This document shows positions 965 to 57,515 of a DNA stretch of 64,000 bases, piece by piece. Position 1 is the first letter of the stretch, and each line of letters starts with the position of its first letter. The position numbers and the translations under genes were made by a program. This stretch comes from Platanthera guangdongensis. Lineage: Eukaryota > Streptophyta > Magnoliopsida > Asparagales > Orchidaceae. Location of the stretch: the NCBI GenBank assembly GCA_039583875.1, contig CM077161.1, positions 63,617,885 to 63,681,884 on the forward strand. Direction: 5' to 3'. The notes beneath the pieces are model-generated. The model ran no database searches. It worked only from the letters and a program-made list of their open reading frames with translations, and was not told the DNA's origin.

Positions 965-1490
965 CGGGTATTTTGAACGGAATACGATACACAGAAAGAA
1001 GCCGAGCGAAAACCTTGACCTAAAATCGCGATCTCCACTCCGCCGCCGCCGTCGCGCTCGAGCTAGTTGGTCGCCGCCTTTGATCGAGATTTCTTCGTGA
1101 TCTTCCGGCGACAGAAGCTTAGCCAAGCTTAGAGTCTCACGTGTCTATCCAGAGATCCCTTGTCTCTCGATTTGTTGATCGGGAAAAACTTCCCCGTCCG
1201 AATCGATCGAGACGCCCGATCCTCGTGTGACCGTTGGTAGACCTAGCTTGCTTCGCTACGAAGTTTGGATCTCCAAAGAACAGCAGCCACACATCGTTGT
1301 TGCCGCCGATCCCGTGAACCTAGCCGCCGTCCATCTTACCGCAACCGGTTCCGGGGAGATTCTCTCCAAGAGAGACCAAGGTTGTGGACTCTTTGTAGAC
1401 TTCAAGATCACGTCGTCAACGAAGAGGGACACCGTAGTGTCCACACGTAGTTTGTATTTCTTGTACATTCTATTTTACTTTTGTTGTAAA

Positions 1491-1600
1491 GGAACGTTAG
1501 TTCCTAGTTGTAAGGGTTGGGTGCAACCCGGTTTGTGGGAGTGTTGACTCCTACGTGTGGAAGGTTTCCTTCCGATAGTGCAAGGATTGGATTTCAATCC
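1491..1600 (+). other. SirA R/U5 hairpin string
   Basis: Five successive short inverted repeats: 1491-1504 (GGAAC/GTTCC), 1514-1529 (GGGTTG/CAACCC), 1538-1551 (GGAGT/ACTCC), 1559-1573 (GGAAGG/CCTTCC) and 1584-1600 (GGATTG/CAATCC). Their starts are 21-25 nt apart. Linkers are related (TTGTAA, GTTTGTG, CGTGT, AGTGCAA). The same string is at 9008-9117 in the 3' LTR. Stem sequences differ but pairing is kept, which suggests structured RNA in the leader. Confidence 0.8.
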
Positions 1601-1653
1601 TGTTGGTGAAGAGACCGAGTCGTCCCTTGTTGGGAGATAGGTCGAAGGGGGAA

Positions 1654-7706: not shown

Positions 7707-9335
7707 TGTTGGGTATTGTATCCACAACGTACCTGATTTGAAGAAGCCCCTGAACAAGCTAAGGTAAATAGGCAATGTTTTTGACAAATTATTTCAAGTT
7801 GTGCTTGCAGTTATTCCACGCTAAGTGCACACCAATGTCAGGGTGCAGTAGGTCAATATACACGGGTCTGCACGACGTAATCCCTCGTTGAGCAGATCAG
7901 TGTGTTGGCCTACGTGTACTCTCTCTATTGGAGTGCACTTACTTTCAAGTACATGGCTGTAATCTTGCAAGAGCAGACAAGGAGCAAGGATGGGTCAAGG
8001 AGCTCATCATGGGTGGAAAGACTAAAATTCGTCTAAGTGAAAATCAACGAGAATCGCCAAGTGATTCTCGCCGAATCGTCGAGAATCAGTGGCTGATTCT
8101 CGCCGACTCGATCCAACTACACTTCAAAGCAAGCAACTCTGATTCTAAGTAAGAATCGACGAGAATCACTAGTGATTCTCGCCGAATCGTCGAGAATCAC
8201 TGGCTGATTCTCGCCGTCTCGACCCGGGCTGAATCAGTGCGTGCAACCAAGTCAACTTCGACGAGAATCATCCTTGATTCTCGCCGAATCGTCGAGAATC
8301 ACCTTTGATTCTCGACGATTCGCCGAGACTCACTTTTGATTCTCGCCGATTTTTACTTGGGCATTTTTCTGGAACTTCCTGAACCGGATTCTGCCGCTGA
8401 CAATGTTCTGGACCGGGACTTAGGGATTCTTCTTGTGGGTCCCACAACGGTCATTTTGAAAGCGTCTACAGTATATATATACGGGTATTTTGAACGGAAT
8501 ACGATACACAGAAAGAAGCCGAGCGAAAACCTTGACCTAAAATCGCGATCTCCACTCCGCCGCCGCCGTCGCGCTCGAGCTAGTTGGTCGCTGCCTTTGA
8601 TCGAGATTTCTTCGTGATCTTCCGGCGACAGAAGCTTAGCCAAGCTTAGAGTCTCACGTGTCTATCCAGAGATCCCTTGTCTCTCGATTTGTTGATCGGG
8701 AAAAACTTCCCCGTCCGAATCGATCGAGACGCCCGATCCTCGTGTGACCGTTGGTAGACCTAGCTTGCTTCGCTACGAAGTTTGGATCTCCAAAGAACAG
8801 CAGCCACACATCGTTGTTGCCGCCGATCCCGTGAACCTAGCCGCCGTCCATCTTACCGCCGCCGGTTCCGGGGAGATTCTCTCCAAGTGAGACCAAGGTT
8901 GTGGACTCTTTGTAGACTTCAAGATCACGTCGTCAACGAAGAGGGACACCGTAGTGTCCACACGTAGTTTGTATTTCTTGTACATTCTATTTTACTTTTG
9001 TTGTAAAGGAACGTTGGTTCCTAGTTGTAAGGGTTAGGTGCAACCCGGTTTGTGGTAGTGTTGACTCCTACGTGTGGAAGGTTTCCTTTCGATAGTGCAA
9101 GGATTGGATTTCAATCCTGTTGGTGAAGAGACCGAGTCGTCCCTTGTTGGGAGATAGGTCGAAGGGGGAAAGTGGATGTACCCAAGTCGGGGAACCATTA
9201 TAAATAGCTTGTGTATTCTGTGTGCTGTGCTGTTTATTTTTATTGTGCAGGTACAATCTTAAATTCCGCAAAAATGCTGCACGTCACCTATTCCCCCCCC
9301 ATAGGTGAACATAGTTGACACTAGGTGGACTTTCA
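7707..9335 (+). repeat. SirA 3' LTR (1629 bp)
   Basis: Duplicate of 158-1817, starting TGTTGGGTATTG and ending CTTTCA. It contains the palindrome array (8042-8350, one 31-bp unit fewer), TATA (8470-8480), hairpin string (9008-9117) and stem-loop. The hairpin copies carry scattered point changes, for example in stems 3 and 4. Confidence 0.95.
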
Positions 9336-19119: not shown

Positions 19120-19395
19120 ACTCGAGTACGAAAATGACCTACTCGAGTAATCCACTTAACCTACTCGAGTACCCTATCAGCCACTCAAGTAACCTACTCG
19201 AGTAGCAGAATGACTTACTCGAGTAGCAGAATCACTCACTCGAGTAATAAAACTTCACTCGAGTACTTCAACATAACTACTCGAGTACTTCAACACAACT
19301 ACTCGAGTACTTCCAGACATCACTCGAGTACTTCCAGCTATCTCTACTCGAGTACCTCCATATCTTTACTCGAGTACTATCAAGTCTCTTGAGTA
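19120..19395. repeat. SirB internal palindrome array (TACTCGAGTA) before ORF3
   Basis: About a dozen copies of ACTCGAGT, spaced 15-30 bp, between the end of pol (19042) and ORF3 (19664). The same 8-10 bp palindrome forms the U3 array of the SirB LTR (22567-23300). The remaining bases of 19043-19663 are AT-rich and show no other feature except one more CTCGAGTAA near 19566. Confidence 0.88.
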
Positions 19396-19663
19396 TATGA
19401 CAGGCAAATTTTTTTCCTTGATTCAAATTTCTTTATTCGCAACCCGAGGCTTATGCCGCCATTTCTAGGGCATGTTTACATTATTTATCTCTTACTTAGA
19501 CATAAACCTAGAGTTATATAAATCATAAATTCCAAAATCATTTTCTACACGAATCAACTTCCCTCTCTCGAGTAAGCAAACAAACGGTTCGTCTTCCACC
19601 AAGAAGTTGCAGAGCCCGCATCATCTTCCTCCCCGCCGCAGATTTTTCTCTTCTTTCTGGATC

Positions 19664-22036
19664 ATGGCCTCTTCCTCGAAGATTGGAATCGGTTCAGAAC
19701 TGGTTATCGCCGGTATAGCTGAAATTTCAGATGATTTTAGAAACCTTCTGATATTTCTCGACACCGCCAGCCTCACCTTCATTCTCCAGGAGCCATGTAA
19801 AATCCCGTTTCTAGACGTTGCAAAGTTCTTCAAAAATGTCAAAGTCAAGAGACATGGAGTAGTTCTCAAGTCTAGAGTCAGAGGAATCAAATTCAAACTT
19901 ACCAAGACCTCTATTTCACAACTTCTTCGACTGTCGATTATTGATGAAGAAGATCATCTTGATCCTGATGAATCTGATAGGACCTGTATGTTCTGTGGAA
20001 TTTCTCCAGATGAAGAATACATCAAGAGATCTCAGTTGAATCCTGAAGGAAAGCTACTAGTGGATATCATAGGTAAAGTCCTTCTCTGCAAAACTAGTTC
20101 CATAAGAGACATCTCTCTGTCTTTCTTTGATATCATACAAGCAATAGTCTGCAGGAAGAAATTTCAGTTTGGGATGATGATTCTAGATAAGATAAAAGAT
20201 ATCATTAAGGCTCCCAGTTATGCCAGGATTATATCTCTTCTACTTCATGAAATCAATCCAGAAATCTTCAGCTTCTCCAAAGGAACAGTTCTCCATCATA
20301 TGAAGAAAGTCTCTATTTCATCAATCCAGAGATGGGACTTGAAGTTACAAAATCCAGTTCAAGCTGCCAAAGCTCAAGAGCTTCAAGCTCCAGAGGACAG
20401 GACCCCATCTCCCTCTCCATTTCAGGTTGCCAGCTCCTCTGGTGTACCTATTGAGGGGGAGCCTGCTCCTTGTGGTTCAGTCAGAATTCCTACCCCTCCA
20501 GATGTTACATCTCCTCCTCCTTCCACACATGAACAAGTTTCATCAGAAGTTCCATCAGAAACTCTTTTATCCACTGAAGCAGCAATAAATGAGATGATTG
20601 TAGAATTAACAGCTGATGAACCCCTTCCCCCTCTTCCAAAAGTACCAACTGATGATGTGCCCAAGCAACCCACTCAAGTACAATCTCCGTCACACACTCC
20701 ATCCCCAACTCCACTGTCTCCTGCTGTAAATCAAGAGTAGGATGACATCATTTTAATTTCTGATGAGAAAGAGAAAACTCCTGAACTAGCTGAAGCTCTA
20801 TTAAGAAATTTGAACTTCACCATTCCCAAAGTCACTGATGAAGGGGATGCCCCGATTCATACTACCAGAGCTGAGAGCTCTGTAATAATTAAAGAGACAA
20901 CTCCATGGGTTGATCCTCCTCCTCCAGTTCCCTCTTCTGTTGCTCCTCATGCTGTAGTGGCTCCTCTCAGTGATTTGATGACTTAGTTTGTACTTCTACT
21001 TCAAGAACAAAGGACATATTTTGATTCTTCTCTCAAAGCTGTTACTGACAAAGTCACTGCTCTAGAGACTGAGATGAGCAGTGGATTTGCTGAGATCCAG
21101 CATAATACAGATCAGCTCAGACACCTCTTTCAAATTGGTGAAAAGGCTCTAGATCACACTATTACTAGTGTTGGTCAAGTCATGGAGCAAGGTGTGACTC
21201 TTATAAATAATCATATAGAATTGGATAAGAGAAATGAAGCTACGAAGATGAAGATTTGTGACAAAGTAGGCACTTTCAAAGAAGATGCCATAAATAAACT
21301 GACTGTATAAGTCAGAAAATGGGAGAGGTTAGTGAAGGAATACCTAGAGAAATCAGATGCACTCAAGCAAGAGCTCTAGGAAGCTAAGATGAAAGAAATC
21401 CATGATGATGTTCTAGGACAAATATAAAGTGTCAAATTCCATACATATGACACAGCTGTCTAGATGCACAATCAAATTCTTCCTGAGTTTGCTGTAGATC
21501 CAAACATCATTCCTCACCACCTAAACCCATTAGCTGCTGCTGCTCCTGCTCAAGCTCAACAGCCTACCTTCTCTCCTAGACCTGAAGGTTGTGATGGTCC
21601 TCCTCCAGAATCATATGCTCAAGTCTAGGAAGCTGTCCTTGCAGACATATTCTTCCAAGCTCCTCCTGAGATCAACACTTCAAAGAAGAAGAGAAAATAT
21701 AGTGATGGTGCCTCTGCCAGCAGGTCAATCCCAGTTCCAAATGCTGAAAAGAGAAAAGCTCCAGAGTTTGCAGAGATCTGGTCTCCTACTTCAAAATCTC
21801 TTATTTTAGATACTCTCAAACTGGCTATGGATTACAATGAAAGCAGGAATGAACATTATAGCTCCCAGGAATGGGAATTATATGAAAAGTCTATGACAAA
21901 GAGAAGACTGTATGATAGAGAATTTAGGAGGAACAACCCTGCTGCTCCTCCAAAGCCTCTTAAGTACTATCCCAAGCCATTCAGCTACCAAAGGAGACAA
22001 TAAGAGAAAAAAGACAGGCAGCAACACCAAGAGTAA
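19664..22036 (+). pseudogene. SirB ORF3: conserved extra Sirevirus ORF, with nonsense changes
   Basis: About 790 codons in one frame with no frameshift. ATG 19664 (MASSSKIG) is preferred over an in-frame ATG at 19607 because SirC and SirE ORF3 also start MAP-. Residues 1-225 form a globular domain shared with SirC, SirD and SirE (GKLLVDIIGKVLLCK, RIISLLLHEINPE). The middle is Pro/Ser/Thr-rich, then a coiled coil (about 440-560). A C-terminal block has WSPTSKSLILDTLK, HYSSQEWELYEKS and KYYPKPFSYQRRQ. In-frame stops near 20738, 20984, 21308, 21377, 21425, 21461, 21626 and 22001 are all TAG or TAA, as expected from CAG/CAA decay. I see no signal peptide or membrane segment, so it does not look like an envelope protein. 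Function unknown; the N-terminal part may match 'putative plant transposon protein' families. Confidence 0.8.
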
Positions 22037-22231
22037 GCAAAAAGGATTATGAGAGTTTGGAAATGATTTTTGTAGAAATGATATTTTGACAATCACATTT
22101 ATATAATTCTCAATTTTGGTCATATAATCTTGATTATAGTCTTATGCTTGCTTACACTGATTTATCTATTTACATATTTAGCTCTTTTTTATGTTTATAA
22201 TTCACCTTAGTGTAAAGAGTTCTGACTTCTA

Positions 22232-22246
22232 CAAATAGGGGGAGAT
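22232..22246 (+). other. SirB polypurine tract
   Basis: CAAATAGGGGGAGAT abuts the 3' LTR and is identical to that of SirA. The stretch 22037-22231 between ORF3 and the tract has no other feature. Confidence 0.88.
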
Positions 22247-22566
22247 TGTTGGGTATTGTATCCACATTAACCCAAATTTGATGAAGTCACCTTTGAACTA
22301 AGATGAATTAAGTTGTATTTGATGCTTTATTTAAGTTATGTGTTTGTAGGATTCTAATGCCAAGTGTAGACCAATGTCAGTCTACAATGGGTCACCAAAT
22401 ACAGGACCATACAATGTAATCCCTCATTGTGTGATCCATGATGTTGGCTCATGTGTAGCCTCTCTATTAGGATACACTTCATATTCAAGCACTAGGTCTA
22501 ATTGGAGAAAGGCTTGTTGATGTATTCGACAAAGAAGAAGAGAATTCTGTTTAAAGAATTTTGCTA

Positions 22567-23300
22567 AGTACTTTACTCGAGTAGATACCTAAATACTCGA
22601 GTGAAATACTAAGTCAATACTCGAGAAAGATTATAAGTACTCGGGTGAAGGAATTAGTTCTCGAGTAGTCACATTATAGCTCTCGAGTAGCTAAGACAAC
22701 TACTCGAGTAGATCCCTTCTCATTCTCGAGTAAACAGAATTTCTTCTCCAGAAAATGTTCTAAGTAAAATACTCGAGTAGTCATATAAGTACTCGAGTAG
22801 TTTAGTCTTTTGTATCAAGTTACAGAAGACTGGATTTCATTCAATTTTTCCTCACTCGAGTAGTCAAATTCATGTACTCGAGTAGTCCATCTACTACTTG
22901 AGTAGTCCAGACTAAATACTCGAGTAATAAGATTTTCTTCCCTCAGAATTTTTCTAAGTCCATTACTTGAGTAGCTATTTCTATATACTCGAGTAGCTTA
23001 TATCCTCTCGAGTAGTTCAGTTTCACTACTCGAGTAACCCAGATTTTTCTTTCATAAAATTTTCTAAGTCCTTGACTCGAGTAGTTCCTCTACCTCTCGA
23101 GTAATACTTCTTGTACTCGAGTAGTAAATCTCCACATCTCGAGTAGCTATATTAGCACTCGAGTAAGTCTCTTTTTACTCGAGTAGCTGCTCATCATTTC
23201 TGGACTTTCTCTCGAGTCATTCACCCGAGTAGTTTTCTTCTATTCACTCGAGTAGTCTTATTAAGTGCTCGAGTAGGTTAACCTTCTCTCAAGTATGTCA
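22567..23300. repeat. SirB U3 array of ACTCGAGTAG palindromes
   Basis: More than 20 copies of (A/T)CTCGAGTA(G/A), spaced 15-35 bp with unrelated AT-rich spacers; each contains CTCGAG. The array lies just upstream of the TATA box. Confidence 0.92.
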
Positions 23301-23417
23301 GTCATCCTTTTCAGAAAAATTGTTAAGTCCAGTTTTTGACAGAAATTTCAAACCGCCGTGACGTGATTTGTCCATGTGTACGTCATTAAGAATAATTATG
23401 ACCGTTAGGGAAGATCC

Positions 23418-23425
23418 TATATAAA
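23418..23425 (+). promoter_or_regulatory. SirB LTR TATA box
   Basis: CCTATATAAAG, about 120 bp downstream of the palindrome array. Confidence 0.7.
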
Positions 23426-23801
23426 GTCTTGTCAAACCGACAAACTCGAACAATAATTGTTGTCAAGATTATTCTAAGTAAATCTGAATCTCATTCTCTC
23501 TCTCTCTCAAAAAAAAATGAAAGTCGCCGCCGCCGACCTTCATCGCGCATATCCGGCTAGGGTTTTCGATTCCAGAGGATTCAGATCAAGAAGATTCACA
23601 GATCGAGGTTTTCGCTCCATTCTTCATCATCTATCCGATCGTGTGAAGCCAAGAAATTTCAAATTTTCCTTTGCCGAGATTCTTCTTCAACTTCTCTGAT
23701 AAAGCCGCAAAGATCCAAGAAGAAGATTCATGCTGACTGTTTTCAGATCTAAGAAAGTTGTACTGTTTGTATTTTCACATACTTTCTATTTCATTCTTGT
23801 A

Positions 23802-23932
23802 GGAGAATTCTCTTCGAGTGTAGGAGCTTTTGTCTCCGAGTTGTAGGAAGTATTATCTTCCGAGTGTAAATCCGTTTTGTGGACCGAGATTGTAGGAACT
23901 TTGTTCCGAGGCGTAGGATTGATTTTCAATCC
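23802..23932 (+). other. SirB R/U5 hairpin string
   Basis: Six stems starting at 23802, 23823, 23846, 23871, 23895 and 23916 (pitch 21-25 nt): GAGAATTCTC, GGAG/CTCC, GGAAG/CTTCC, TCC/GGA, GGAAC/GTTCC and GGATTG/CAATCC. Linkers are nearly constant (CGAGTTGTAGG, CGAGTGTAGG, CGAGATTGTAGG). Confidence 0.85.
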
Positions 23933-24151
23933 GAGATAGTGGAGTGGCCGAGTCTACTGTATTGCTAGATTGGTGAGGGAAAGTGGATGTACCCAAGGTT
24001 GGGGAACCACTATAAATCTTTTGTCGTCTGTGATTGATTGGCAGATAATCGTGTGCATAGATCTTAAATTTTTATTCCGCAAAAAGACACACAACTCACC
24101 TATTCACCCCCTCTAGCTGATTTAGGTAGACAACTAAACACTTTCAACCAC

Positions 24152-29577: not shown

Positions 29578-29580
<3 letters not shown>

Positions 29581-29658
<78 letters not shown>
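29581..29658. repeat. (TA)n microsatellite
   Basis: Nearly 80 bp of perfect TA dinucleotides inside the DelB LTR, next to a TATATAAAC that may be the original TATA region. Confidence 0.97.
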
Positions 29659-29975: not shown

Positions 29976-30241
29976 TGAAAGAATTGTTTTCAAGATGTCC
30001 TAAACACCTAGAGGGGGGGGGGGTGAATAGGTTCAATTTGTTTTCTAACTTAGGCAGACAAATCTATCTAGTTTATCAATTTATTCAGTAGATATCACAG
30101 CACAACATTCACATACACACAACATTCCATAGATTGCACACCAGATTTATAGTAGTTCCCCAAATGATGGGTACATCCACTTTCCCCCTTCGCCTATCTA
30201 GTAGTATACTAGATTCAGCCTAACTTCCTTCTTTCTTCTCA

Positions 30242-30533
30242 GATCCGCAGATCTTATAGCTCAGAACCAAGAATGGTTCCTACAACTCAGAGTGAATCCA
30301 CACTCCTACAACTCGGGCACAAGCCCTACCTCAGCCTCTTTCACAGGCCTATAACTCAGAGTGAAACCCCACTCCTACAACTCAGGAAAAAGCCCTACCT
30401 CAGCCTCTTTCACAGGCCTACAACTCAGGGAAAAGATTCCCCTACCTCAGGCACTCAGCCCTACCTCAGCCTTTATTATTTAGGCTTACAAGTCAGAAAA
30501 ATAAATCTTCTACACTCAGATCTATTACAGATC
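30242..30533 (-). other. SirC R/U5 hairpin string (3' LTR copy)
   Basis: At least ten short inverted repeats with starts 19-26 nt apart (plus-strand 30242, 30264, 30290, 30315, 30334, 30359, 30402, 30428, 30450, 30469, 30518), such as GAACCAAGAATGGTTC, GAGTGAATCCACACTC and GGGAAAAGATTCCC. They are joined by CTACAACTCAG/CTACCTCAG linkers, the reverse complement of the SirB linker. Confidence 0.85.
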
Positions 30534-30878
30534 CTACAAAATTATTGATGAAAAGATAATAATATCTTCAACAAGATGGAGAGAGAATTGGTTGAAGGCT
30601 TCTTGATCAGTTCTTGATAGAACTGATTACTTAAGGATCAACCTATCTTAACTTCTTCAAAGCTTCTTGAATCTGAACAAAGTAAGGTTGATCTTCTTAG
30701 TGTTGGAGTTGATATTTAATCAGCTTCCTTCTTATTCGGAAATTAATCTGAATTCTTCTTCAGAATTGATCTGAATTCTTCTAGCAGACTGTTCAGGATC
30801 TGCCTTCACTGGATGGGGACTTCTCTCCTTTATTGGACTTTGACTCAGTAGTAGAGAATGTCGAGTGAATACTTCACA

Positions 30879-31272
30879 TATCTCGACACACATAGTCCAT
30901 GTGCCGACACAAGTCTTCATGATGTCGACACAGCTTCACTTTTACTTCTCGACACAGCTTCTGTGGAATGTATCGACACAAGTCCTATGTGTCGACACAG
31001 TCACTCCTTGTCTTGACAAAGTTGGTGTCGACAGAATTCTGGTGTGTGTCGACACAAGTTCTGCGTGTCGACACAGTCATTGTCGACATAATTCTGGAAT
31101 GTGTCGACAACTTCTCTTTGTGTCGACACAAATTTTGGGTGTCGACACAATCTGGCCCTTGGTGTCGACACAGCATTTACGACAGATTTTTTGTGTGTTG
31201 ACACAAATTCTAGGTGTCGACACAATCTGACCCTTGGTGTCGACACAGCCATTCCTAAGTGTCGACACTTGT
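30879..31272. repeat. SirC U3 array of TGTCGACA palindromes (3' copy)
   Basis: About 18 copies of GTGTCGACACA or close variants, spaced 15-30 bp; the core contains GTCGAC. Confidence 0.9.
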
Positions 31273-31408
31273 ACTTAGAAATTATTTTCTTCCATTTACT
31301 TAACATGCACATGATAACTCAACACAACATCAAATACAAATTAATGCATATCATTGAGTTAGGTGAAGCTTCTCCAAATCTGGTATACCTTTTCCAATGT
31401 ACCCAACT

Positions 31409-31424
31409 ATCTCCCCCTATTTGG
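31409..31424 (-). other. SirC polypurine tract
   Basis: The minus strand reads CCAAATAGGGGGAGAT, abutting the 3' LTR. The stretch 31425-31672 is AT-rich 3' leader with no other feature. Confidence 0.88.
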
Positions 31425-31672
31425 AGAAGTCATAACCCTTAGTCAATGATATACATCACTTATAATAAAATAAACAATATGATGTATAAAAGAATTCAAT
31501 GATAGGGTAACATATAAGCAAAACAAGTATATTATATCATCACAGAATATGATACAAACATAATAAGCATGAATCATTGTTTTGTTTAAACTTCAAAAAA
31601 AGTTTGTTAACAACAGATTACATAGATTTTAAAACTGAAGAATACAATGTTCTAAAATCTAGTCAATCTATC

Positions 31673-34420
31673 CTAAGGCTGATCAGGCTCCTTGCTCACT
31701 ATGCCTTTGCCAGACTGGACCATTGCTTGTACTGGAGCTTCAGTATCTTCAGCTGGCTTCTTGCCTTTGAGATCCTTCTTCTTAAGTTCTTCAGCCTTAA
31801 CCATTTGCCTTTCAAAATAGTGATAAGGCTTGAGAAAGTATTTACTGGGCTCCACAGCAGTAGCAGGTTTTTTCCTAGCCTTTTGATCCCTTCTAAACTT
31901 ATATATAGCATCTTATCTCTGCAGATATTTGCTCCACTCAAGTTCAGAATACCACTTGTCTCTATCATGCATTTTGTCTTTGACAGCTTTCCATGCAGTG
32001 AGTATTATATTTCTGGAGGTGGGACTCCATCTTTCAAAATCAGGCTTCATTTCAGCCTGCTCTCTAAACCTTTTCTTTGAGAGTTGAGCTTCTTGCTCTT
32101 TATTTAATGCTACCTCTAACATTTCAACTTCCTCAATATTCACATTCTGAACCTCCTTTGGAGGACTATACATGTGTTGAACACCATTTTGAATACCTTC
32201 AAAATCAGCAGGGGGATAAATAGTTTGAGTTACTACCTGCTGAGCCCCTTCATTATAAGCAATTTGAATGCCTGACTCAGTAGTATTATCATCATCACAT
32301 AGGGGTGGATATCCCAGAGTTGCTCTAACAGTATTTGTTATCCATTTAGCATGCTCTGAGCTAGCATTGACTAACACCCTCTCCCCCTTTATAACTTCTC
32401 TTTCAACATGATTTCTGAGATCATCTTTCTGAAATCAGATTTGATCAACTAAGTAGTTTGTACCTTCTGTATAATAAGCTTTAAACTTCTGTAGCTGAGC
32501 AGATATAATCTTCTGAGAGGCTTGAATGGCAGATTGGAAAGTGGCTAAATCTTCTAGAAGTTTGTTATCAAACTCTAACTTCTCTTTAGCCCTTTCCTCA
32601 GTTAATGCAGTTGCAGTATTCTTTAACTCAGTAACAATCACATTATATGATTCAGTAAGATTATCATTCATCCTGAGCTGATTTTCCAGAACATATCCTT
32701 GCTTAACTACTATGTCATCAATTTGAGTCCTGGCCTCTTGTTGCTGCTTGGCCAGATAAACTACAACATTACCTCCTTTATGGAAGCAGTCTGTCATCTC
32801 TTTCTTATTCTGGTTTACTTCAAATCTGAATGATTTTATATCTTAAGCCAAAGTAAACTGAAGTTCCTTATGACTTTCATCCACATTTTTTTCAAGAGCT
32901 TATCTTTGCTCATCCATTTTAACTTACAGAGAAACCAACAGTGAACTGAAGTCAACTGCTAGAGCTGAGGTTTGTGAGGCAGTCTATAAAGCTTTCTTAT
33001 AGCTTGAGCTTTTCTTCCTGTAAACCATCAGTTTTCTCTTCTTTTCTCTGAGTGCTTCACCATCATCAGATTCAGAAGAACTTTCAATGTTCAATGTGTC
33101 CTTTGGACTAGAGGGCAGCTCCTTGTCAGTCCTTGGCAACTCCCCCTTAGTCCCTGGCTCCTCCCCCTCAGTCCTTGGCACCTCTTGTAAGTCAGGAAAC
33201 AATTCCTCAAGATTGAATTCTTGTTGCAGTTGAACTGGAGGAATATCTTGCTCCTGTGCAGTAGATGGAGGGACATCACATGCAGAGATGTCATCCATTG
33301 CAACATCCTGTGGTTGGACATAGACTTGAGTAGTCTGTTCAACATCAGTATTTTTACCAACATGATTTATATCATTTATTACCTCAAGTATTGTGTCAGT
33401 GACTGTGTCAGTCAGTAGTTCAGCTTGCTCAGTCTCATGAGCATCCTTTGAAGGTGATGGAGCTTCGGAAACTGGAACTTGTAGAGGCTCCCCCTGGAAT
33501 TTCTCCATCAGCTCCCCCTGAAAGTGATCCATCTGCTCCCTCTGCATCTGACTATCATCAGCAGTCTCAAGAGCAAGTGATTTTCTAGCAGTTTCTGGTC
33601 TTTCCTCTTCTGATCTGAAGACCACTTCTTCATTTGAATCACTAGAAGATTCAGGTTTCCTTTGGGTTCTCTTTTTCTTTTTCAGTTATGGTTGTTTATG
33701 TGGTGTAGAACCATCCTTTGTCAGAACTCTTTCCCACCTGGATAGTATTTTCATATCCATCCTTCTCATTTGGTTTATCCTAGATCCTGTTGTGTGGTTC
33801 ATCACTTCAGGAATATTCATTGCCAGATACAGACTCAGTATTCTTCCTAAATTAGGTTTCTTCAAACTTTCCTTGATCTTTTCAAAGATCACAGCAGACC
33901 AGTTAGTTTTTACTCTGAAAATAACTCTGGTCATTAAGCTGAACATATATGCTGAGATCCTATCATGTCCTGCTGGTTTGCAGAGAATTACTTTTCCCAT
34001 AATCTATGAAAGAAACTTTCCTTGAGAGTTTATCCCCTTCCTCTGCATTGATGATTCAATCTTAGTGGTGGGATCCAGTCCACACCATTGAAGAGATTCT
34101 TTTGTCATTGAAGATGTGACTTCATCATCTTCTTGAGTCCTGGGCAACTGTAGTGTCTTCCTTAGATGCTTCTGTGTAAGTTTCACCTTGCTTCCTTGAA
34201 TTGATGACCTAATCTTCAATACAGTTGAATCCAGTATTGCTGCTCTATAGAATTCAAGAACCTCCTTCTTCCAGATCTTGGTCGATTCTGAAACTAGATA
34301 TTCCAAACCACTTTCTTTTATTAGGGTTATAACATCTCTGATGTCAGTCACAGCACTCTCAAAAGCATCACGAACTAATTCATAGCCTTCGTTGATGTTG
34401 TTCTCCAATTTTGGCGCCAT
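31673..34420 (-). pseudogene. SirC ORF3: conserved extra ORF with in-frame stops
   Basis: About 915 codons in one minus frame from ATG 34420 (MAPKLENN) to 31673, interrupted by about five stops (near 34001, 33683, 32980-32800, 32432 and 31910) but without a frameshift. N-terminal domain: LEYLVSESTKIWKKEVLEF, GKVILCKPAGHDRISAYMFS and LGRILSLYLAMNIPE. The middle is acidic, Ser/Thr/Pro-rich with TEGE-type repeats encoded by purine tracts. Central coiled coil (about 32797-32435). C-terminus: RWSPTSRNIILTAWK, KWYSELEWSKYLQ and SKYFLKPYHYFERQ. The same three-part plan occurs in SirB, SirD and SirE. No signal peptide or membrane segment seen. Confidence 0.8.
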
Positions 34421-34576
34421 TGGTGACGAGAAATTTGAGGAGAAGAGAGATAAAGGTTTGTCGACTCAAAGATTTGGTCCCAAAAATGTTGAGAGCGTGG
34501 TCGACAAAGTTGTTCTGTGACCTATTTATATGTTTGTCAACATAGAAGGTTAAAAGGCGGGTAATAAATACTTAAT

Positions 34577-34935
34577 GTGTCGACACTGTAGAGATTGTGT
34601 CGACACAGACTTCTAATGTCTCGACAGGGTCAGACAACACTATATGTCGACAAGTTTGCGATGTGTCGACACAAACTTCTTAACAGTCGACTCTTATATC
34701 TGCGTGTCGACACAGACGACTGTATGTGTCGACACTTCTATCTAAATGATAGAACTTCTACGTGTCAACACCAAACTCTGAGTGTCGACACCACTATCTC
34801 ACCACTATTTTGTTGTGTCGGCACAACTTTCCTTATGTGTCGACACAAACTACTATATGTTGACACAGATTTCCTTTTGTGTCGACATCAAATACTATAT
34901 GCCGACACAGATTTCCTTTTGTGTTGACATTGAAT
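34577..34935. repeat. SirC internal TGTCGACA array between pol and ORF3
   Basis: About 15 copies of TGTCGACAC and variants between the pol stop (34957) and ORF3 ATG (34420), the same core as its U3 array. Mirrors the arrangement in SirB. Confidence 0.9.
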
Positions 34936-34956
34936 TACTTTGTCAGATTTACTAAG

Positions 34957-37900
34957 TTACTCAAGGTTTAACATGCCTAATTCAATTTTAAAATAATTGA
35001 ATTTACTTTCATCTAGTGGTTTAGTAAACATTTCAGCAATTTGATTATTTGTGGTGACAAATTCCAAACAGATATCTTCTTTTTCAACATGCTCTCTAAT
35101 GAAGTGAAATATAATTCCTATATGCTTTGTTCTGCTATGTGATATAAGATTTTTAGCAATAGAAATATCACTTGTAGAATCACAAAATAGTGGAGTTCTA
35201 CTTACCTTGAGACCATAGTCTTCAAGTTGATGTTGAATCCATAAAAGCTGAGCACAGCAGCTGCCGGCAGCAACATATTCAGACTCAACATTGGAAATTG
35301 CCACACTTGTCTGCTTCTTACTGCTCCATGACACCAATCTACCACCTAGAAACTGACATGTGCCAGTGGTGCTCTTTCTATCTTTTTTGCAACCTGTAAA
35401 GTCTGCATCTGAAAAACAAGTCAGTAGAAAGTCTCTATTCTTAGGGTACCAAAGACCAAGATTAGGGGTGTCCTTAAGATATCTCAAAATTCTTTTAACT
35501 ATAGTATAATGAGATACTTTAGGGCTTGCTTGGTACCTAGCACAGACACATGTAACATACATAATGTCTGGTCTACTAGCAGTTAAGTATAGAAGGGAGC
35601 CAATTATCCCTCTATACAAAGACTCATCTATAGGTTTTCCTACATCATCTTTGCCTAAAGGCATACTTGTCCCCATTGGAGTTCTCATGGTGGTGGATGA
35701 CTCCATACCATATTTCTTAATTAACTCCTTGGTGAACTTAGACTGTGAAATGGACAAGCCATCATCAGTCTGTCTTACTTAGAGTCCCAAGAAGAATTTC
35801 AGCTCACCCATACTGCTCATCTCAAACTTCTCTTGCATAAGTTTTGCAAACTTCCTACAAAGGTTGTTTTCTGTTGATCCAAAGATTATGTCATCAATAG
35901 AAATCTGGACTAGGATCATCTTGCCCTTTGACTCCCTAAGGAATAGAGTCTTGTCTATTTTCACCCTTAAAAATTTGTTCTCAATGAGGAAGGTAGACAA
36001 TGTTTCATACCAAGCCCTAGGGGATTGTTTCAAACCATATAAGGCTATCTTAAGCCTATAAACATAATCAGGATATTGTGGATCAACAAAACCTGAGGGC
36101 TGTTCAACATAGACTTCTTCTTTCAAATTACCATTTAGGAATGCTGACTTGATATCCATTTGGTATACTTTGAACCCTTGGAAAGCAGCAAATGCAAGAA
36201 ATAGCCTTATTGCTTCCAACCTTGCCACTGGGGCAAATGTATATCAAAGTCTATGCCCTCTTCCTGTCTATAACCTTTGGCAAACAGTCTTGCTTTGTTC
36301 TTCACTATGATGCCATTTTCATCTAGTTTGTTCCTGTAGATCCACTTAGTCTCAATAATATTATGATCCTTTGGTTTTGGAACCAGCTCCCATACTTTAC
36401 ACCTTCTGAATTGATTCAACTCCTCCTGCATTGTATCAATCCAGTTGGAGTCTTGTATAGCTTCTTCAAATCTCTTTGGTTCCACCTGTGACAGGAAACT
36501 TGAGCAAAACACTGTATTCATGTGTTTGCTTCTGGTTTGCACACCATGTCTTGGATCACCAATAATTTGGTGTGCTGGATGATCCTTTAGATTCCTTATT
36601 GTTGGAGACATTCTATCAACAATTTGAACTTCTTTAATTTCTCCACCATGCTGTACTTCATTGTCTTCAATGTCAGCTTGTGGACCTTGTACTCCCCCTG
36701 GACAACAACCATCATTTTCCTCATCCTGTCTTGCAGTTTGGTCTTCATTAATGGTCAGCATGTACAACTTTTCTTTTAAACCTGTTGAGTTACAAGAATT
36801 GCTAGACAACTCACAATTAATTAACTCAGATTCATCAAATACTACATGAACAGATTATTCTACAACTTGTGTAGTCAAGTTGTAGACCCTATATGCCTTA
36901 CTTTCATTGCTGCACCCAACAAATATCCCATCTTGGGATTTGGCAGCAAACTTAGTTAGGTGAGACTTGCCAGTGTTAAGCACATAACACCTACTACTAA
37001 AGATCCTAAAGTAGGATATGTTTAGTTTTCTGCCCTTCATAATCTCATAAGGTGTCTTTTTGTGGCTCTTAGTTATGGATGCTCTATTGAGAACATGACA
37101 AACATTATTCACTGCCTCAACCCAGAAATATTCTGGGAGAGAAGTGTCACTTAGTAGAGTTATACCAGCCTCAATAAGAGTCCTATTCTTTCTTTTAGCA
37201 ATTCCATTTTGCTGAGGTGTTCTAGGTGAGGAGAATTCTTGATGAATCCCTAGTTCTTCACAAAACCCATGTAAATCTAGAATAATCATCTACTACCACA
37301 AAAGTATAGACTTTCCTACCTAGACTATGAACTGACATAGGACCAAATAGATCCATATGCAAGAGGTACAAACACCTCACAGAGTCTTTGGTATCAAGAC
37401 TATGAAAAGAGGATTTGGTCTGCTTGCCTTTTTGACAAGCTGAACATATACCCTCTTTTATGCACTTAAATTGAGGACCATTCCTCACTAACTCTAAACT
37501 ATAGAGTTGGCCTATAGTCTTATAGTTCAGATGAGTTAGCCTCTTATGCCATTGGACACACTAATATGCTTTCTCATCTACAACTAAACATACATGTGAG
37601 TTCATGTGTTCATAATCAAAATTTAAACAATAAACATTCCCTTTTCTATAACCAGACAAGATCACCTTCTGATCACTTGTCCTTTTAATCTGACACCCAT
37701 TCTTAATAAATGAAGTGTCATACCCAAGATCACTCAGCTGACTTATGCTTATCAAGTTATGTTTCAAACCTTTTACATAAGCCACTTGAGTGATTGTTAT
37801 AGAACTAGGAGAAATATTACCAAACCCATTGATGACCCCTTTTTCTAATCCACCAAAGATCACTTTGGGTCCACTTTCTATGGGAGTATAGTCCTTTAAC

Positions 37901-37977
37901 ATTCTTCTTGTTCCAGTCATGTATCTGGAACATCCACTGTCCAAGTACCATATAGGAGTATGACAACTTGGACTCAC
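34957..37977 (-). pseudogene. SirC Pol, broken
   Basis: Protease WYLDSGCSRYMTG near 37930, pre-integrase zinc region (CSACQKGKQT), integrase pieces (LHMDLFGP, VVDDYSRFTWV, RTPQQNGIAKRKNRTLIEAG), reverse transcriptase ([12 protein letters not shown]; the catalytic motif reads SIDD, not YVDD, near 35910) and RNase H (CFSDADFTG, ESEYVAAGS). Stops near 37561 and 35780 and frame changes around 37260-37300 and 36210-36230 inactivate it. Confidence 0.9.
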
Positions 37978-40131
37978 CTGCATCAAATAAGATAACTTAA
38001 CCTTAGAACCCCAATAATTATTGGGTCCTAGGTTCTGGTTAGACTGAAACCTATCAAACTTACCAGCAGTCTTTTTGACAAGTAAGCTGACATTCTTCCT
38101 GACAGTTGTGTTGTACCAACAGTCAATGACATAATGGCCCACCATGCCACAACACCAACACTCATATCTATTATATCTCCTTTTTAATACAGTTTTAACA
38201 GCATTACTATCAGCAGTCTTTAAAACTATAGGTTCAGTGGTTCTATTCCTGAGAGCTGGGGCTGGAGCATCAACCATTGATGATCCGTGATGACCATGTG
38301 TGATATCATGATCATATCTATTAGTTGGCTGCCACACTTTTCTGAAGGAAATGGGGGGTTTGAAGGCTAGTGACTGTACTGGGGCTTTGCCTTTTCTTTT
38401 GGAATTGGCAGCCCTTGCATTTACCTTAAAGCCCAATCCTGTCTTACCCTTTTTGGGAATAAAGTCATCAATTAAGGGTAAGACTGATTTTGGCTTAGAT
38501 AATCTAGCCACCAGATCCTTCTCCCTCTGAAGTTTGACTTCCAGACTTTTGAATTGATCATTCTTGAATGAAATTGTACCCATCTGAATAACAGTTATGT
38601 TTTTTAGTTTGGATACCACATTCATCTTTAGATCCAGCATTTGTTCTGAATCTAATGTAGCCAACTTAAGAGATGTAATTTCCTTAGTCTGACTTTTAAC
38701 TAGGTTCCTGCTTCTCTTAAGTTCTTTCAACAAATCACCTTATTCATCAATGAGTTGATTAACATCTCCTCAGATTTAGATCTATCCACATCTCTTGATG
38801 CAGATGCTTCTGATTCTGATCCAGTGTAATAATCAGAACCTGATAGCATATTGTTTACCTTACTCGGACCAGGCTGATCCTGACACTGATCTTCATCAGT
38901 CATAGCCATCAGTCCTTTATAATGAGGATCTTCAATTCCTTTTACTGAGTCCAGCAATTTCAAGAACTCAGACTCTTCTGCATCCTCTTTAGTTGCAAAC
39001 ACTCCTATGTATGCTTCAGCTTCAGCTTCAGCCTTAGAATCTGATGATGAAGAATCTGACTAGCTTTTTTGCTTCTTTGCAACAAAGGATTTCTCCTTCT
39101 TGCCCTTGTTTTTTAGTTTCTTCTTGTCATTAGATTCTTTCCTTTTATTAGGACAATCAGCTACCACATGTACAAGCCTGTGCTTTCTAGAGGATTTCTT
39201 TTTCTGATAGTAATCATCCTTGGATTATGAGGAGGATGGCTTGGATCTTCACTATTTCTTCTTCAAGAACCTTTGAAATTATCTTGAGAAAGCCGCCAAG
39301 TCTTCATCAGAATTTGGACTATCTGATGTCTGACTGTCAGAACTTTTTGAAAATACTTCTACAACATTCTTAGGAGGAGATGGTGACATCCTCCTGTCCT
39401 TTCTTATGGCTTCAGTCTTGAAAGCCACTAACTTATCTCTGTAATCAACTTTATAACTTTTCTCCTCCTCCTTTTTGGCCATCAGCTGCATCTCATATGA
39501 AAGCAGTTTGACAAATAATGTAGGAGGTGAGATTTCTGCTAGTCTAGCCACTTCCCTAATGGCACATATCATGGTGTCCCAGTCCTTAGTTTATGATCTC
39601 AAAAACTTATCATTTAACTTATATGTGCTGAATACTCTTCCATATGACATCAATTCATTAACTATTCTGAAGAACTTCTTGTAACATTCAGTTATGCTGT
39701 CTGTTTTAGATTGTCTAAAACTTTCATACTCCTGATTCAACATAGACTTTTTATCTTCTCTCACTTCTTCTGATCCCTCCATGTAGACAATCAGGGTGTC
39801 CCACATTTCTTTGGAGGTCTTGTAGTGAATCAAATTTTGGGATGTTGAGTCATCTATAGCACTGACTATTATATTCTGTGCTCTCTTATCCATAGTAGCC
39901 AAGATGATCTCATCCTTTGTAATTTCAGAATACTCCTTTGGTGTCCTGAGATTTGCATCAAGAACTGAGACTTTCATTGGGATGAATGACCCTTTTTGAC
40001 TATCATATAGATTCTTGGATCTGAAGCTTCCATAAACAGTCTAACTCTTTCTTTCCATATGCCAAAAATCTCTTTCCTGCATATAGGTAATTCATGGAAC
40101 CAAACTCCTTATGATTCTCAATGGAACCCAT
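37978..40131 (-). pseudogene. SirC Gag, broken, in frame with protease
   Basis: ATG 40131 (MGSIENHKEF). A frameshift lies before the conserved WKERVRLFMEASDPR segment (about 40040). Further blocks: 39977-39591 (NIIVSAIDDS, SMLNQEYESFRQ), 39572-39279, 39002-38727 (acidic), coiled coil 38733-38500, zinc knuckle 2 (CWCCGMVGHYVIDC near 38150). Knuckle 1 near 39160 is decayed. No stop lies between the end of Gag (NNYWGSKV) and protease, so gag and pol are fused here, yet TTTGATGCAG still marks the junction. Confidence 0.85.
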
Positions 40132-40198
40132 TTTGCCTAATAGATTTCTGCCTTGGAGATCTACTCAGACTGTTAAGTCTATTCTTTGAGTAACCTCC

Positions 40199-40209
40199 CT
40201 CTGATACCA
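40199..40209 (-). other. SirC primer binding site
   Basis: TGGTATCAGAG on the minus strand, initiator tRNA-Met type, just inside the 5' LTR end. Confidence 0.9.
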
Positions 40210-40479
40210 CTTGAAAGAATTGGTTTCAAGATGTCCTAAAAACCTAGATGGGGGGGGGGGGTGAATAGGTTCAATTATTTTTCTAACTTAGGCAGACAAA
40301 TCTAACTAGTTTAGCAATTTATTCAGCAGATATCATAGCACAACATTCACATACACACAACATTCCAAAGATTGCACACAAGATTTATAGTGGTTCCCCA
40401 AATGATAGGTACATCCACTTTCCCCCTTCACTTATCTAGCAGTGTACTAGATTCGGCCTAACTTCCTTCTTTCTTCTCA

Positions 40480-40772
40480 GATTCGCAGATCTTATAGCTC
40501 AGAATCAAGAATGGTTCCTGCAACTCAGAGTGAATCCACACTCCTACAACTCGGGCACAAGCCGTACCTCAGCCTCTTTCACAGTCCTACAACTCAGAGT
40601 GAAACCCCACTCCTACAACTCAGGCAAAAGCCCTACCTTAGCCTCTTTCACATGCCTACAACTCAGGGAAAAGATTCCTCTACCTCAGGCACTAAGCCCT
40701 ACCTCAGCCTTTATAATTTAGGCTTATAACGAAGAGAAATAAATCTCCTACACTCAGATCTATTACAGATCC
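40480..40772 (-). other. SirC R/U5 hairpin string (5' LTR copy)
   Basis: Same series as 30242-30533, with some stems better preserved (for example AGGCAAAAGCCCT where the other copy has AGGAAAAAGCCCT). Confidence 0.85.
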
Positions 40773-55746: not shown

Positions 55747-56087
55747 TAGGGTGGATTTTTCATCAACCCTAATTGTGCTAAAATCAAGAAATATTCCAAT
55801 CAAAAAGTTCTCGTCGGCTCACGTATACTATTTCGCGATTTCTGCTCCACCGACTACTATGCTGCACGATTTGATCATCTTCAAGCTAATCGCCTAGATT
55901 GTTGTTCTCTAAAGATTCTGATTCTCTCAGATCTAGTAGATTAGTGATCAAATTCTTCAAAGCATTATGATTTTTCGTGCTCTCCAAGACATTCAAGATC
56001 AACATTTTCGAAGAACGACGGATTGAAGACTTAGATCTAAATTAGAGTGTTTGTGATTCTTATTATGTAAATATTTTTACTTTTGTA

Positions 56088-56242
56088 GGAGTTTTTCCCT
56101 CCGAGTTGTAGATCCGTGTTTGGATAGAGTTGCAAATCCATGTTTGGATCGAGTTATAGGAGAGGTTGTTCTCCGAGTGGTAGGAGCATTGTCTCCGAGT
56201 TATAGGAGTTGAGACTCTGAGGTGTAAGATTTGTTTAAATCT
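56088..56242 (+). other. SirD R/U5 hairpin string
   Basis: Seven stems starting at 56088, 56112, 56136, 56159, 56183, 56205 and 56227 (pitch 22-24): GGAG/CTCC, ATCC/GGAT twice, GGAGA/TCTCC, GGAG/CTCC, GAGT/ACTC and AGATTT/AAATCT. Linkers GAGTTGTA, GAGTTGCA, GAGTTATA, GAGTGGTA and GAGGTGTA. Confidence 0.88.
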
Positions 56243-56448
56243 GAGATAAAGGTGAAGTAGATGAATCTATCCCTTCATGGTAGATAGGCGAGGCGGGACA
56301 GTGGACATACCCAACTCAGGGAACCACTATAAATCTCACTATTCTGTGTGCTTAATTTTTCAGTTGATTTTATTTCGAGAAAAGAGATAGAACTAACCTA
56401 TTCACACACCCCCCTCTAGGTGATTTAGGTAAACAATAGATACTTTCA

Positions 56449-56710
56449 CCTTTTGAAGGTAGATCTACTTGTGTGTTTATGTTCTTTAGTTAGCACTCAA
56501 GAACACATACAACACACAAGAATTTATAGTGGTTCCCCTATCTATGGTACATGCTCTTCCCCCCTTCACCTATCTAGTAGTGAGCTTGATTTGGCCAACT
56601 ACTCCTTTACTCAAATCAAACTGATCTTTAACCTTAGATCCCTCTGTGGATCATACAACTCAGAGTGCACTTCACTCGTACAGCTCAGACTGATTACAGT
56701 CCTACCTTTG
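56449..56710 (-). repeat. SirF: U5 scrap of another Sirevirus-like LTR
   Basis: Minus-oriented: TATAGTGGTTCCCC (stem-loop element) near 56526 and three hairpins (GATCCCTCTGTGGATC, GAGTGCACTTCACTC and GACTGATTACAGTC) at 56637-56697. SirD lies on its left and SirE is inserted on its right (CTTTG, 56706-56710). Confidence 0.6.
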
Positions 56711-56959
56711 TGAAAGTTATTTAACTAAAGGTTAGCTAGTCACCTAGAGGGGGTGGGTGAATAGGTCTTTGAAATTTTTAAGTATTTTCACTAGTTTCTT
56801 ACGATGTGATCTAGAGCTTATCCTTAGCACATGTAATATAAGAACAAACAAACACAACAACCAAGCACATTGTTATTTATAGTGGTTCCCCAATTAGGTA
56901 CATCTACCTTCCCTCCCACTTATCCAACTATTTTGTTGGACTAGGCACAGACTCCACCA

Positions 56960-57515
56960 ATATGCTCCTCGGAGCTTACACCTCAGGCCCTGAGCCTTAC
57001 ACACAGATTCTTTTCAGAATCCAAACTCAGAACCACAAAGGTTCCTACCTTAGAGACCTACAGAGCTCCTACATATCAATGGTCCACTGACCACCTGCCT
57101 CAGCCTTATTTCTAAGGCCTACACCTCAGGCTCTTTAGCCCTATAACTTCAGGCACAAAGCCTCACTCTCAGAGTGCTACAACACTCCTACAACTAAGTA
57201 CCCTACAAGTACCTACCCCGGTGCCCTTCTAGGCACCTACATCTCATCCTCCTCCAAGTAATACAACTCAGTGACACACTTGTCACCTATAGCTTAGTGA
57301 CTCACCAGTCACCCACCTTATCCTTATTATTAAGTCCAACTACTCAGTCTAGGAGGACATCCCTACTCTCAGATCCACACTTGGATTGTACCTTAGTACA
57401 CCAGTAGGGCACATTCCTCAGTGACTAGTTAGTCACCTACAGCTTAGGCCAAAAGGGCCTACAACTCAGATTCAGGTAAACTGAATCCTACAATAGTTTA
57501 TACAGGATGAAATAA
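56960..57515 (-). other. SirE R/U5 hairpin string (about 20 units)
   Basis: Examples on the plus strand: GATTCTTTTCAGAATC (57006-57021), GAACCACAAAGGTTC (57030-57044), GTGACACACTTGTCAC (57271-57286), GTGACTCACCAGTCAC (57297-57312), GTGACTAGTTAGTCAC (57421-57436), GGCCAAAAGGGCC (57447-57459) and GATTCAGGTAAACTGAATC (57469-57487). Linkers CTACAACTCA / CTACAGCTTA. Same ~24-nt pitch as in other elements. Confidence 0.85.

What the first reader, a model, noticed from the sequence alone, without database searches (positions are those of the whole stretch)
23802..23932. A 23-nt-pitch string of short hairpins with changing stems and constant linkers fills R/U5 of all six Sirevirus-like LTRs
Seen directly: SirA has 5 stems (1491-1600), SirB 6, SirC at least 10, SirD 7, SirE about 20 (56960-57515), SirF 3. 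Starts are 19-26 nt apart, typically 22-25. Each unit is a 4-7 bp stem with a 4-9 nt loop, followed by a linker close to CGAGTTGTAGG. Stem sequences differ from unit to unit and element to element, yet both arms change together, which is the signature of selection on pairing rather than on sequence. The location is the 5' leader of the genomic RNA. Inference: an RNA scaffold for packaging, dimerisation, Gag binding, translation or small-RNA interference; unit number evolves by repeat gain and loss.
Basis: partly seen in the sequence, partly recalled or inferred. Interest (0 to 1): 0.92.

Follow-up and report, generated by a model that had tools for sequence, protein, structure and literature searches.

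The report
Tandem RNA hairpins in retrotransposon leader
Downstream of their predicted promoter, nearly all sampled Sirevirus-like jumping genes of this plant-type genome carry a string of a few to about 20 tiny hairpins whose stems differ from unit to unit yet stay base-paired, with near-constant spacers every 23 or so bases; this points to an RNA structure kept by selection, likely an exposed docking scaffold for the element's own coat protein.

Summary
Parsing units by their linkers alone (no pairing used), 38 of 40 loci sampled on a downstream LTR motif (25,238 exact genomic copies) carry the string: 267 units, 244 of them paired at 3 or more of the 4 inner stem positions. At stem positions 3-5 Watson-Crick pairing is 73-90% against 28-33% when 3' halves are re-dealt (0 of 500 re-deals reach it), and all four pair types occur. 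Stems within an array are barely more alike than stems of different loci (0.36 against 0.33), yet each pairs with itself. In two elements tested, the two LTRs differ at paired sites only by one-sided, mostly pair-breaking changes, so pairing is not restored after insertion. AUG is depleted 8- to 14-fold from TATA through the array but not in U3, which marks a scanned 5' leader. A-runs about 25 nt after TATA, and a published model, put the poly(A) site upstream of the array: it is probably U5, not R. That disfavours my own first idea, a UGUA poly(A) enhancer. Best mechanism, untested: single-stranded GAG-U-UGUA linkers held open at regular pitch as a repeated Gag docking site. My literature searches listed no such string.

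The parts
23790..23935 (+). hairpin string in the LTR named by the finding (six units, near-constant linkers)
23802..23815 (+). unit 1
23823..23837 (+). unit 2 (GGAG..CTCC)
23838..23845 (+). linker GAGTTGTA between units 2 and 3
23846..23861 (+). unit 3 (GGAAG..CTTCC)
23869..23885 (+). unit 4, imperfect stem in this copy
23895..23907 (+). unit 5 (GGAAC..GTTCC)
23916..23932 (+). unit 6 (GGATTG..CAATCC)
22247..24146 (+). LTR that holds the finding, preceded by a polypurine tract
23418..23426 (+). predicted TATA box of this LTR
23983..24016 (+). GTGGATGTACCC..GGGGAACCACTATAAAT motif downstream of the string; its second half was the sampling anchor
1488..1602 (+). five-unit string, 5' LTR (158-1817) of element A
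9007..9120 (+). same string, 3' LTR (7707-9335) of element A; the two strings differ at 4 of 129 aligned positions
30230..30490 (-). string in the 3' LTR of the minus-strand element 29976-41906 (target duplication CCACT)
40468..40730 (-). string in the 5' LTR of the same element
56085..56245 (+). seven-unit string, LTR beginning at 54751
56955..57515 (-). longest string in the window, about 20 units
56630..56710 (-). short string, three clear units

Best explanation
The string is a tandem array of short hairpins whose stems differ in sequence while keeping their pairing, it lies in what AUG depletion marks as the 5' leader of Sirevirus-like Copia retrotransposons, and it likely works as a repeated docking site that holds single-stranded GAG-U-UGUA linkers open for the element's own Gag zinc-knuckle protein during packaging of the genomic RNA. 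Shown by calls: the array, its pitch, self-pairing of variable stems, near-constant linkers, AUG depletion across it, and a Gag ORF with a CCHC zinc knuckle in element A. Inferred: the array is in U5 and so only at the 5' end of the RNA; the linkers are the recognised part, since inner stems and loops carry no shared sequence; the stems act as spacers. Many weak hairpins (predicted median -4.7 kcal/mol) rather than one strong structure would let ribosomes scan the same leader. Predicted and untested: Gag binds it cooperatively and packaging rises with unit number.
For: Linker-only parse, then pairing test: 197 unique units, Watson-Crick at positions 3/4/5/6 = 0.90/0.88/0.73/0.64 against 0.28/0.33/0.31/0.29 after re-dealing 3' halves, 0 of 500 re-deals reach any of these. 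Re-pairing arms inside one array lowers mean pairing in 39 of 39 sets of at least 4 units (36 sampled loci and 3 window sets, one of which pools three LTRs); own pairing passes the 0.5% level in 24 of 39, a level that sets of 4 or 5 units cannot reach. Direct compensatory sets such as GGTCTT/AAGACT, GGACTT/AAGTCT, GGCCTT/AAGGCT. Within arrays, stem positions 3-6 are 29-45% identical, linker-side positions 1-2 72-95% (871 unit pairs). G-U departures outnumber A-C departures 77 to 41 at positions 2-5 (382 unique units), as expected if the sense RNA pairs. AUG observed/expected (first-order Markov of the same stretch): U3 149/121, TATA+30 to array 12/103, array 6/80 (22 of 40 loci). Gag with zf-CCHC PF00098 in element A. 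In HIV-1, packaging depends on stem-loops plus several unpaired guanosines acting together (PMC9142903, passages); MPMV has redundant purine-rich sites (PMC7674771, passages).
Against: The G-U over A-C excess is modest once arm composition is allowed for (re-deal expectation 186:150 on the unique set; observed 47:23 against 82:63 on the clustered set), and not significant among 41 one-sided transitions traced to a near-identical relative (26:15, p 0.12). Sense-strand folding z is weaker than antisense. The linker varies: of 267 parsed linkers 207 end in TGTA, 55 in GGTA, 5 in AGTA, and the parse itself demanded GTA. AUG depletion fits a translation role just as well, and is milder after the array (25/59, then 28/97). 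A cruder count over all loci with three or more linkers, foreign inserts included, found 39 ATG and 47 CAT in arrays. All copies come from one genome, so spread across plants is untested. The Sirevirus name rests on LTR motifs, not on an RT tree.
Confidence: 0.42

Rival explanations
1. Translation leader: a run of small local hairpins keeps a long, AUG-poor leader from folding into large structures, so ribosomes can scan to gag; the linkers are simply the unstructured gaps.
For: AUG depletion over TATA+30..array (12/103) and array (6/80), not U3 (149/121); unit energies weak, median -4.7 kcal/mol.
Against: Does not explain why linkers keep GAG..GUA while stems vary freely; an AUG in GTGGATGTACC follows the array in 20 of 22 loci and opens short reading frames.
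Confidence: 0.25
2. Poly(A) enhancer: the UGUA-bearing linkers are a far-upstream element, and hairpins bring UGUA pairs together for the CFIm25 dimer.
For: 207 of 267 parsed linkers end in UGUA; plant FUEs contain UGUA and more UGUA goes with stronger terminators (PMC11245536, passages); a NUDT21 dimer binds two UGUA at least 7 nt apart (PMC10476966, passages); UAUAAAU plus a GU-rich stretch follow the array.
Against: Behind the TATA word, A10 runs occur in 18 matches (16 places) within 61 nt, 1 in the next 61 nt, T10 in 0; in 11 of 15 places fetched the run sits at the ACA(G) site about 25 nt after the TATA start with the LTR continuing beyond. PMC3601003 section 13 puts the Sire poly(A) site at a CAACAAA motif beside TATA. 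The array would then be downstream of the cleavage site. No A15 run follows the downstream motif within 61 nt; the 4 places with A10 there sit in LTRs that continue too, so A-runs inside LTRs alone are not proof of a poly(A) site.
Confidence: 0.07
3. Reverse-transcription element: the array lies in the minus-strand strong-stop region and paces or pauses RT, or shapes the first strand transfer.
For: If R is short, strong-stop DNA must copy the whole array before transfer (inference).
Against: A pausing role would suggest strong stems, and these are weak. Recombination at unit borders was not tested.
Confidence: 0.1
4. Mutational origin: RT or polymerase template switching turns imperfect palindromes into perfect ones, so co-changes need no selection.
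For: Would also give compensated stems; units do duplicate in tandem (L043). The G-U over A-C excess is only modest.
Against: Between the two LTRs of one element all changes at paired sites are one-sided: 3 or 1 in element A and 5 or 7 in the minus-strand element, by whichever copy is folded, none two-sided, so no repair after insertion; linkers stay near-constant and AUG is avoided. Repair during reverse transcription itself is not excluded.
Confidence: 0.08
5. Small-RNA related: hairpins feed or block silencing.
For: Palindrome clusters in maize Sirevirus LTRs attract siRNAs (as cited in PMC10760457, passages).
Against: Those are one palindrome repeated in the cis-regulatory part; these are 4-7 bp stems downstream of TATA, all different; a 23-nt pitch follows from stem plus loop plus linker length. 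No small-RNA data here.
Confidence: 0.04

Closest known systems
Sirevirus U3 repeated motifs (RM boxes; PMC2829016, abstract, passages and sections 11-13 seen; Bousios 2016 known here only as cited in PMC10760457)
   Same: Repeated inverted-repeat boxes in LTRs of the same group of elements
   Different: RM boxes lie upstream of TATA, repeat one palindrome, most with a CGG-CCG core, and are read as promoter elements. The string here lies downstream of TATA, each stem differs, and the constant part is the linker. The parts of the paper that I saw do not mention it.
Retroviral packaging signals (HIV-1 SL1-SL4 with unpaired guanosines, PMC9142903; MPMV ssPurines/bpPurines, PMC7674771; passages)
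   Same: Leader stem-loops with single-stranded purine- or G-rich stretches, redundancy, conservation of structure over sequence
   Different: A handful of individually distinct stem-loops there; here a tandem array of like-built units at fixed pitch whose number varies from a few to about 20. Gag binding is not shown here.
Plant far-upstream poly(A) element / CFIm25 UGUA pairs (PMC11245536, PMC10476966, passages)
   Same: UGUA recurs in most linkers
   Different: The array appears to lie downstream, not upstream, of the likely poly(A) site
Copia LTR models Sire and Retrofit (PMC3601003, passages and section 13)
   Same: TATA, CAACAAA-like site, short R
   Different: No hairpin array downstream of TATA is described in the parts seen

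Membership tests
Sirevirus (genus of Copia) | LTR/PBS junction CA-A(T/G)TGG-TATCAGAGC | tested here: met
   TTTCA-AGTGG-TATCAGAGG in two elements, last base G for C (definition in PMC2829016 section 12)
Sirevirus (genus of Copia) | TATA near mid-LTR | tested here: met
   23418 in LTR 22247-24146; 582-822 nt upstream of the downstream motif in 23 sampled loci (definition)
Sirevirus (genus of Copia) | poly-C integrase signal near the LTR end | tested here: met
   CACCTATTCCCCCCC / TATTCACCCCC near LTR ends (definition)
Sirevirus (genus of Copia) | terminal PPT tethered to a distinctive attachment site, multiple PPTs | tested here: inconclusive
   AAATAGGGGGAGATTG before the LTRs at 7707 and 22247, with one change before 54751; one further PPT in element A at 7533; the exact published motif was not read
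Sirevirus (genus of Copia) | palindromic RM boxes, CGG-CCG core, upstream of TATA | tested here: inconclusive
   31-nt palindromic repeats at 493-834, without the strict core
Sirevirus (genus of Copia) | RT/RH phylogeny within the Sirevirus clade | not tested
   Only Pfam: PF14223, PF00098, PF00665, PF07727
Retroviral-type packaging signal | structured element in the 5' leader of genomic RNA | tested here: met
   structure; leader placement inferred from AUG depletion; no transcript data
Retroviral-type packaging signal | Gag binding and effect on packaging | not testable with these tools
   needs bench work
Plant far-upstream poly(A) element | UGUA motifs | tested here: met
   207 of 267 parsed linkers
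Plant far-upstream poly(A) element | 30-150 nt upstream of the cleavage site | tested here: inconclusive
   A-runs and the published model put the site upstream of the array; no transcript ends available
Sirevirus U3 palindromes | upstream of TATA, one palindrome repeated | tested here: not met
   array lies downstream of TATA where TATA was found; within-array stem identity at positions 3-6 is 29-45%

The most novel reading that the evidence does not exclude
A new architecture of RNA packaging signal: a modular, tandem-repeat Psi in which the protein-binding word sits in the linker and each hairpin is a freely mutable spacer, so the element tunes packaging by adding or losing 23-nt units. It would be carried by tens of thousands of LTRs in a single plant genome.
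Probability: 0.3. Interest if true: 0.87.

Novelty: new variant of a known kind. Interest (0 to 1): 0.72.

Why it matters
My searches listed no leader RNA structure or packaging signal for a plant LTR retrotransposon, and the review PMC12786077 holds none of the terms packaging signal, stem-loop or hairpin, although such elements fill large plant genomes. Here nature has run the mutagenesis: hundreds of units with different stems, one shared linker, graded copy number. That makes it possible to say which letters carry the signal, and it gives a short non-coding RNA on which Gag binding, translation and reverse transcription can be tested. It may also serve as an annotation mark for such leaders.

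Tried and rejected
Disfavoured: UGUA/CFIm poly(A) enhancer, my own first favourite, on the position of the likely poly(A) site. The two anchors cannot be compared as rates, because the count of the TATA word did not complete. Not supported: selection for stems that avoid pairing with other units of the same array; full cross-pairing within arrays (2.1% of 856) is no lower than between arrays (1.8%). Kissing-loop dimerisation: no shared loop sequence. Folding energy as proof: sense z weaker than antisense. Co-change of near-identical units points the right way (82 of 2280 in register; 68 of 2280, 28 of 1824, 26 of 1824, 25 of 1368 at offsets +1, -1, +2, -2), but the +1 offset comes close, so I rest. 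Looking for the array outside this genome: exact motifs in viral contigs and genome contigs; the viral-contig loci, when scanned, gave no array and looked like phage or other microbial sequence, and the 37 genome-contig loci bear prokaryote titles and were not scanned. No other plant genome was at hand. Dropped rows: 2 of 40 sampled loci have no unit (L179, L191; other sequence stands where the array should be); 18 of 40 were left out of the AUG count because TATA in the expected range or four linkers were not recognised; of the 80 loci chosen by linker, 28 had fewer than two units, some plainly unrelated sequence.

Full report
What is there. The window is part of a 4.25-Gb plant-like genome and is packed with Copia LTRs. 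Element A has both LTRs (158-1817 and 7707-9335) and a target duplication GAACA; ORFs between them carry Gag (PF14223 plus a CCHC knuckle), integrase and RVT_2 matches, split over several frames or pieces. A second element on the minus strand spans 29976-41906 with duplication CCACT. The finding lies in an LTR at 22247-24146 that follows a polypurine tract. Junction, TATA and poly-C features fit Sireviruses as defined in PMC2829016 (sections 11-13 read); I did not build an RT tree.

Is the string real? In the LTR named by the finding six hairpins follow each other between 23802 and 23932, each starting right after GTA and ending right before GAG (unit 4 imperfect). To avoid circularity I parsed units by linkers only (GAG-N0..5-GTA on both sides), then asked whether the segment between them pairs. 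The first 80 loci came from a linker word on contig 1: 52 of 80 had at least two units; with the window arrays this gave 250 units, 207 unique. A less biased sample used a motif downstream of the array, which has 25,238 exact copies genome-wide. I took 40 of its 100 listed places, from the first 31 Mb of contig 1, skipping near neighbours. Of these, 38 of 40 have at least two units and 37 of 40 at least three; 267 units, 244 with three or more of the four inner pairs formed.

Pairing against controls. For 197 unique units, Watson-Crick pairing at stem positions 3-6 is 0.90, 0.88, 0.73, 0.64, against 0.28, 0.33, 0.31, 0.29 when 3' halves are dealt anew; 0 of 500 deals reach any of these. Position 1 says nothing, being fixed by the linker. 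After merging units within three mismatches (97 left) the values are 0.85, 0.80, 0.77, 0.67 against 0.31, 0.28, 0.33, 0.29. At position 4 the pairs are CG 86, GC 46, AT 25, TA 15. Re-pairing arms inside one and the same array, which removes relatedness between elements, lowers pairing in 39 of 39 sets (36 loci and 3 window sets, one pooled from three LTRs); 24 of 39 pass the 0.5% level, which sets of 4 or 5 units cannot reach. A pairing-only parse in a fixed window, blind to linkers, finds 3.7 stems of at least 5 bp per 245 nt against 0.9 in Markov shuffles, with pitch peaking at 22-25 nt, and recovers GAG in 39 and GTA in 36 of 42 gaps of 5-12 nt. The stretch just upstream is stem-rich too (3.3 per 245 nt); I did not analyse it further, and long arrays reach into it in some loci.

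RNA or DNA, selection or mutation? At positions 2-5, departures from Watson-Crick are G-U in 77 and A-C in 41 cells (382 unique units; 1:1 rejected at p 0.001; but re-dealt arms alone give 186:150, so the corrected signal is modest). Traced to near-identical relatives, one-sided departures are G-U 26, A-C 15, other 33 (p 0.12). Units fold better as sense than as antisense in 155 of 197, with 19 ties, which a G/U-rich strand would tend to show anyway. The two LTRs of an element are taken as identical at insertion: in both pairs tested every change at a paired site is one-sided, mostly breaking. So pairs decay in the genome and must be held together over replicative generations. Adjacent units are hardly more alike in their stems than distant ones (0.361, 0.357; between loci 0.334): the array is old or diversifies fast, while linker-side letters stay put.

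Where in the RNA? In 22 of 40 loci with a recognisable TATA, AUG is at or above expectation in U3 (149/121) and strongly depleted from TATA+30 to the array (12/103) and inside it (6/80); after the array it is milder (25/59, then 28/97). CAT, the same letters on the other strand, is 79/111 before and 23/11 inside the array. I read this as the mark of a leader that ribosomes scan. A regular AUG sits after the array in GTGGATGTACC (20 of 22). A cruder count over more loci, foreign inserts included, is less clear (39 ATG, 47 CAT in arrays). For the 3' end of R, I looked for captured poly(A): behind the TATA word GAAGGCCTATAAATAGGC, A10 runs occur in 18 matches (16 places) within 61 nt, 1 in the next 61 nt, and T10 in 0. 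Of 15 such places fetched, 11 have the run at the ACA(G) site about 25 nt after the TATA start while the LTR goes on behind it; several are one subfamily, so I count by eye about five independent events. The site is already A-rich, a confounder, and 4 places have A10 behind the downstream motif, also in continuing LTRs. PMC3601003 (section 13 read) gives a very short R for Sire LTRs with the poly(A) site at CAACAAA beside TATA. I therefore place the array in U5 with fair, not full, confidence.

How it probably works. Three observations narrow the choice: the constant part is predicted single-stranded, the stems are interchangeable, and the leader appears to be scanned. A repeated single-stranded word held open by spacer hairpins suits a multivalent RNA-binding protein. 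The element encodes one itself, a Gag with a CCHC knuckle, and retroviral Gag recognises unpaired guanosines between leader stem-loops, with several sites acting together (PMC9142903, passages). The linker GAGU(U)GUA offers three unpaired G per unit. This step is inference; a translation-only leader is the main rival. UGUA in 207 of 267 parsed linkers first suggested CFIm25 and poly(A) site choice, but the position argues against it.

Prior art. Searches listed no paper that I recognised as describing such an array; I saw listings and abstract openings for most, and passages or sections of the papers cited. Bousios 2016 (Genome Research) is not held and is known to me only as cited in PMC10760457. 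The claim of novelty is limited to that.

Limits. One genome, contig 1 for both samples, no transcripts, no proteins tested. Counts are lower bounds where linkers have mutated.

Noticed in passing
22 sampled loci (of L168-L207); window 23983-24016: AUG is depleted 8- to 14-fold between TATA and the end of the hairpin string; a regular AUG follows in GTGGATGTACC and opens a short frame, often 8-9 codons ending at the TATAA of CCACTATAAAT.
   Followed up: partly
L213-L227, about 25 nt after the TATA start: Pure A-runs of about 10 at one site inside otherwise continuing LTRs (11 of 15 fetched), as if a poly(A) tail had been copied in at the R/U5 border; might serve to map poly(A) sites from genome sequence alone.
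   Followed up: partly
493-834, 8153-8351: 31-nt tandem palindromes (GAATCGACGAGAATCAC..) in U3 of element A, upstream of TATA: candidate Sirevirus RM boxes without the CGG-CCG core.
   Followed up: no
19157-23036; 31025-31068, 34828-34930, 41486-41745: Other palindromic repeats: ACTCGAGT boxes and GTGTCGACAC boxes in and near neighbouring LTRs.
   Followed up: no
L168-L207 downstream of CCACTATAAAT: A GU-rich stretch (up to 83% G+T in a 10-nt bin) follows the UAUAAAU motif for about 50 nt, resembling a poly(A) downstream element; unexplained if the poly(A) site is beside TATA.
   Followed up: partly
L043, L073, L203: Runs of identical or near-identical units side by side, suggesting recent tandem gain of single units.
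   Followed up: no
29580-29658: 39.5 copies of AT, a pure dinucleotide array.
   Followed up: no
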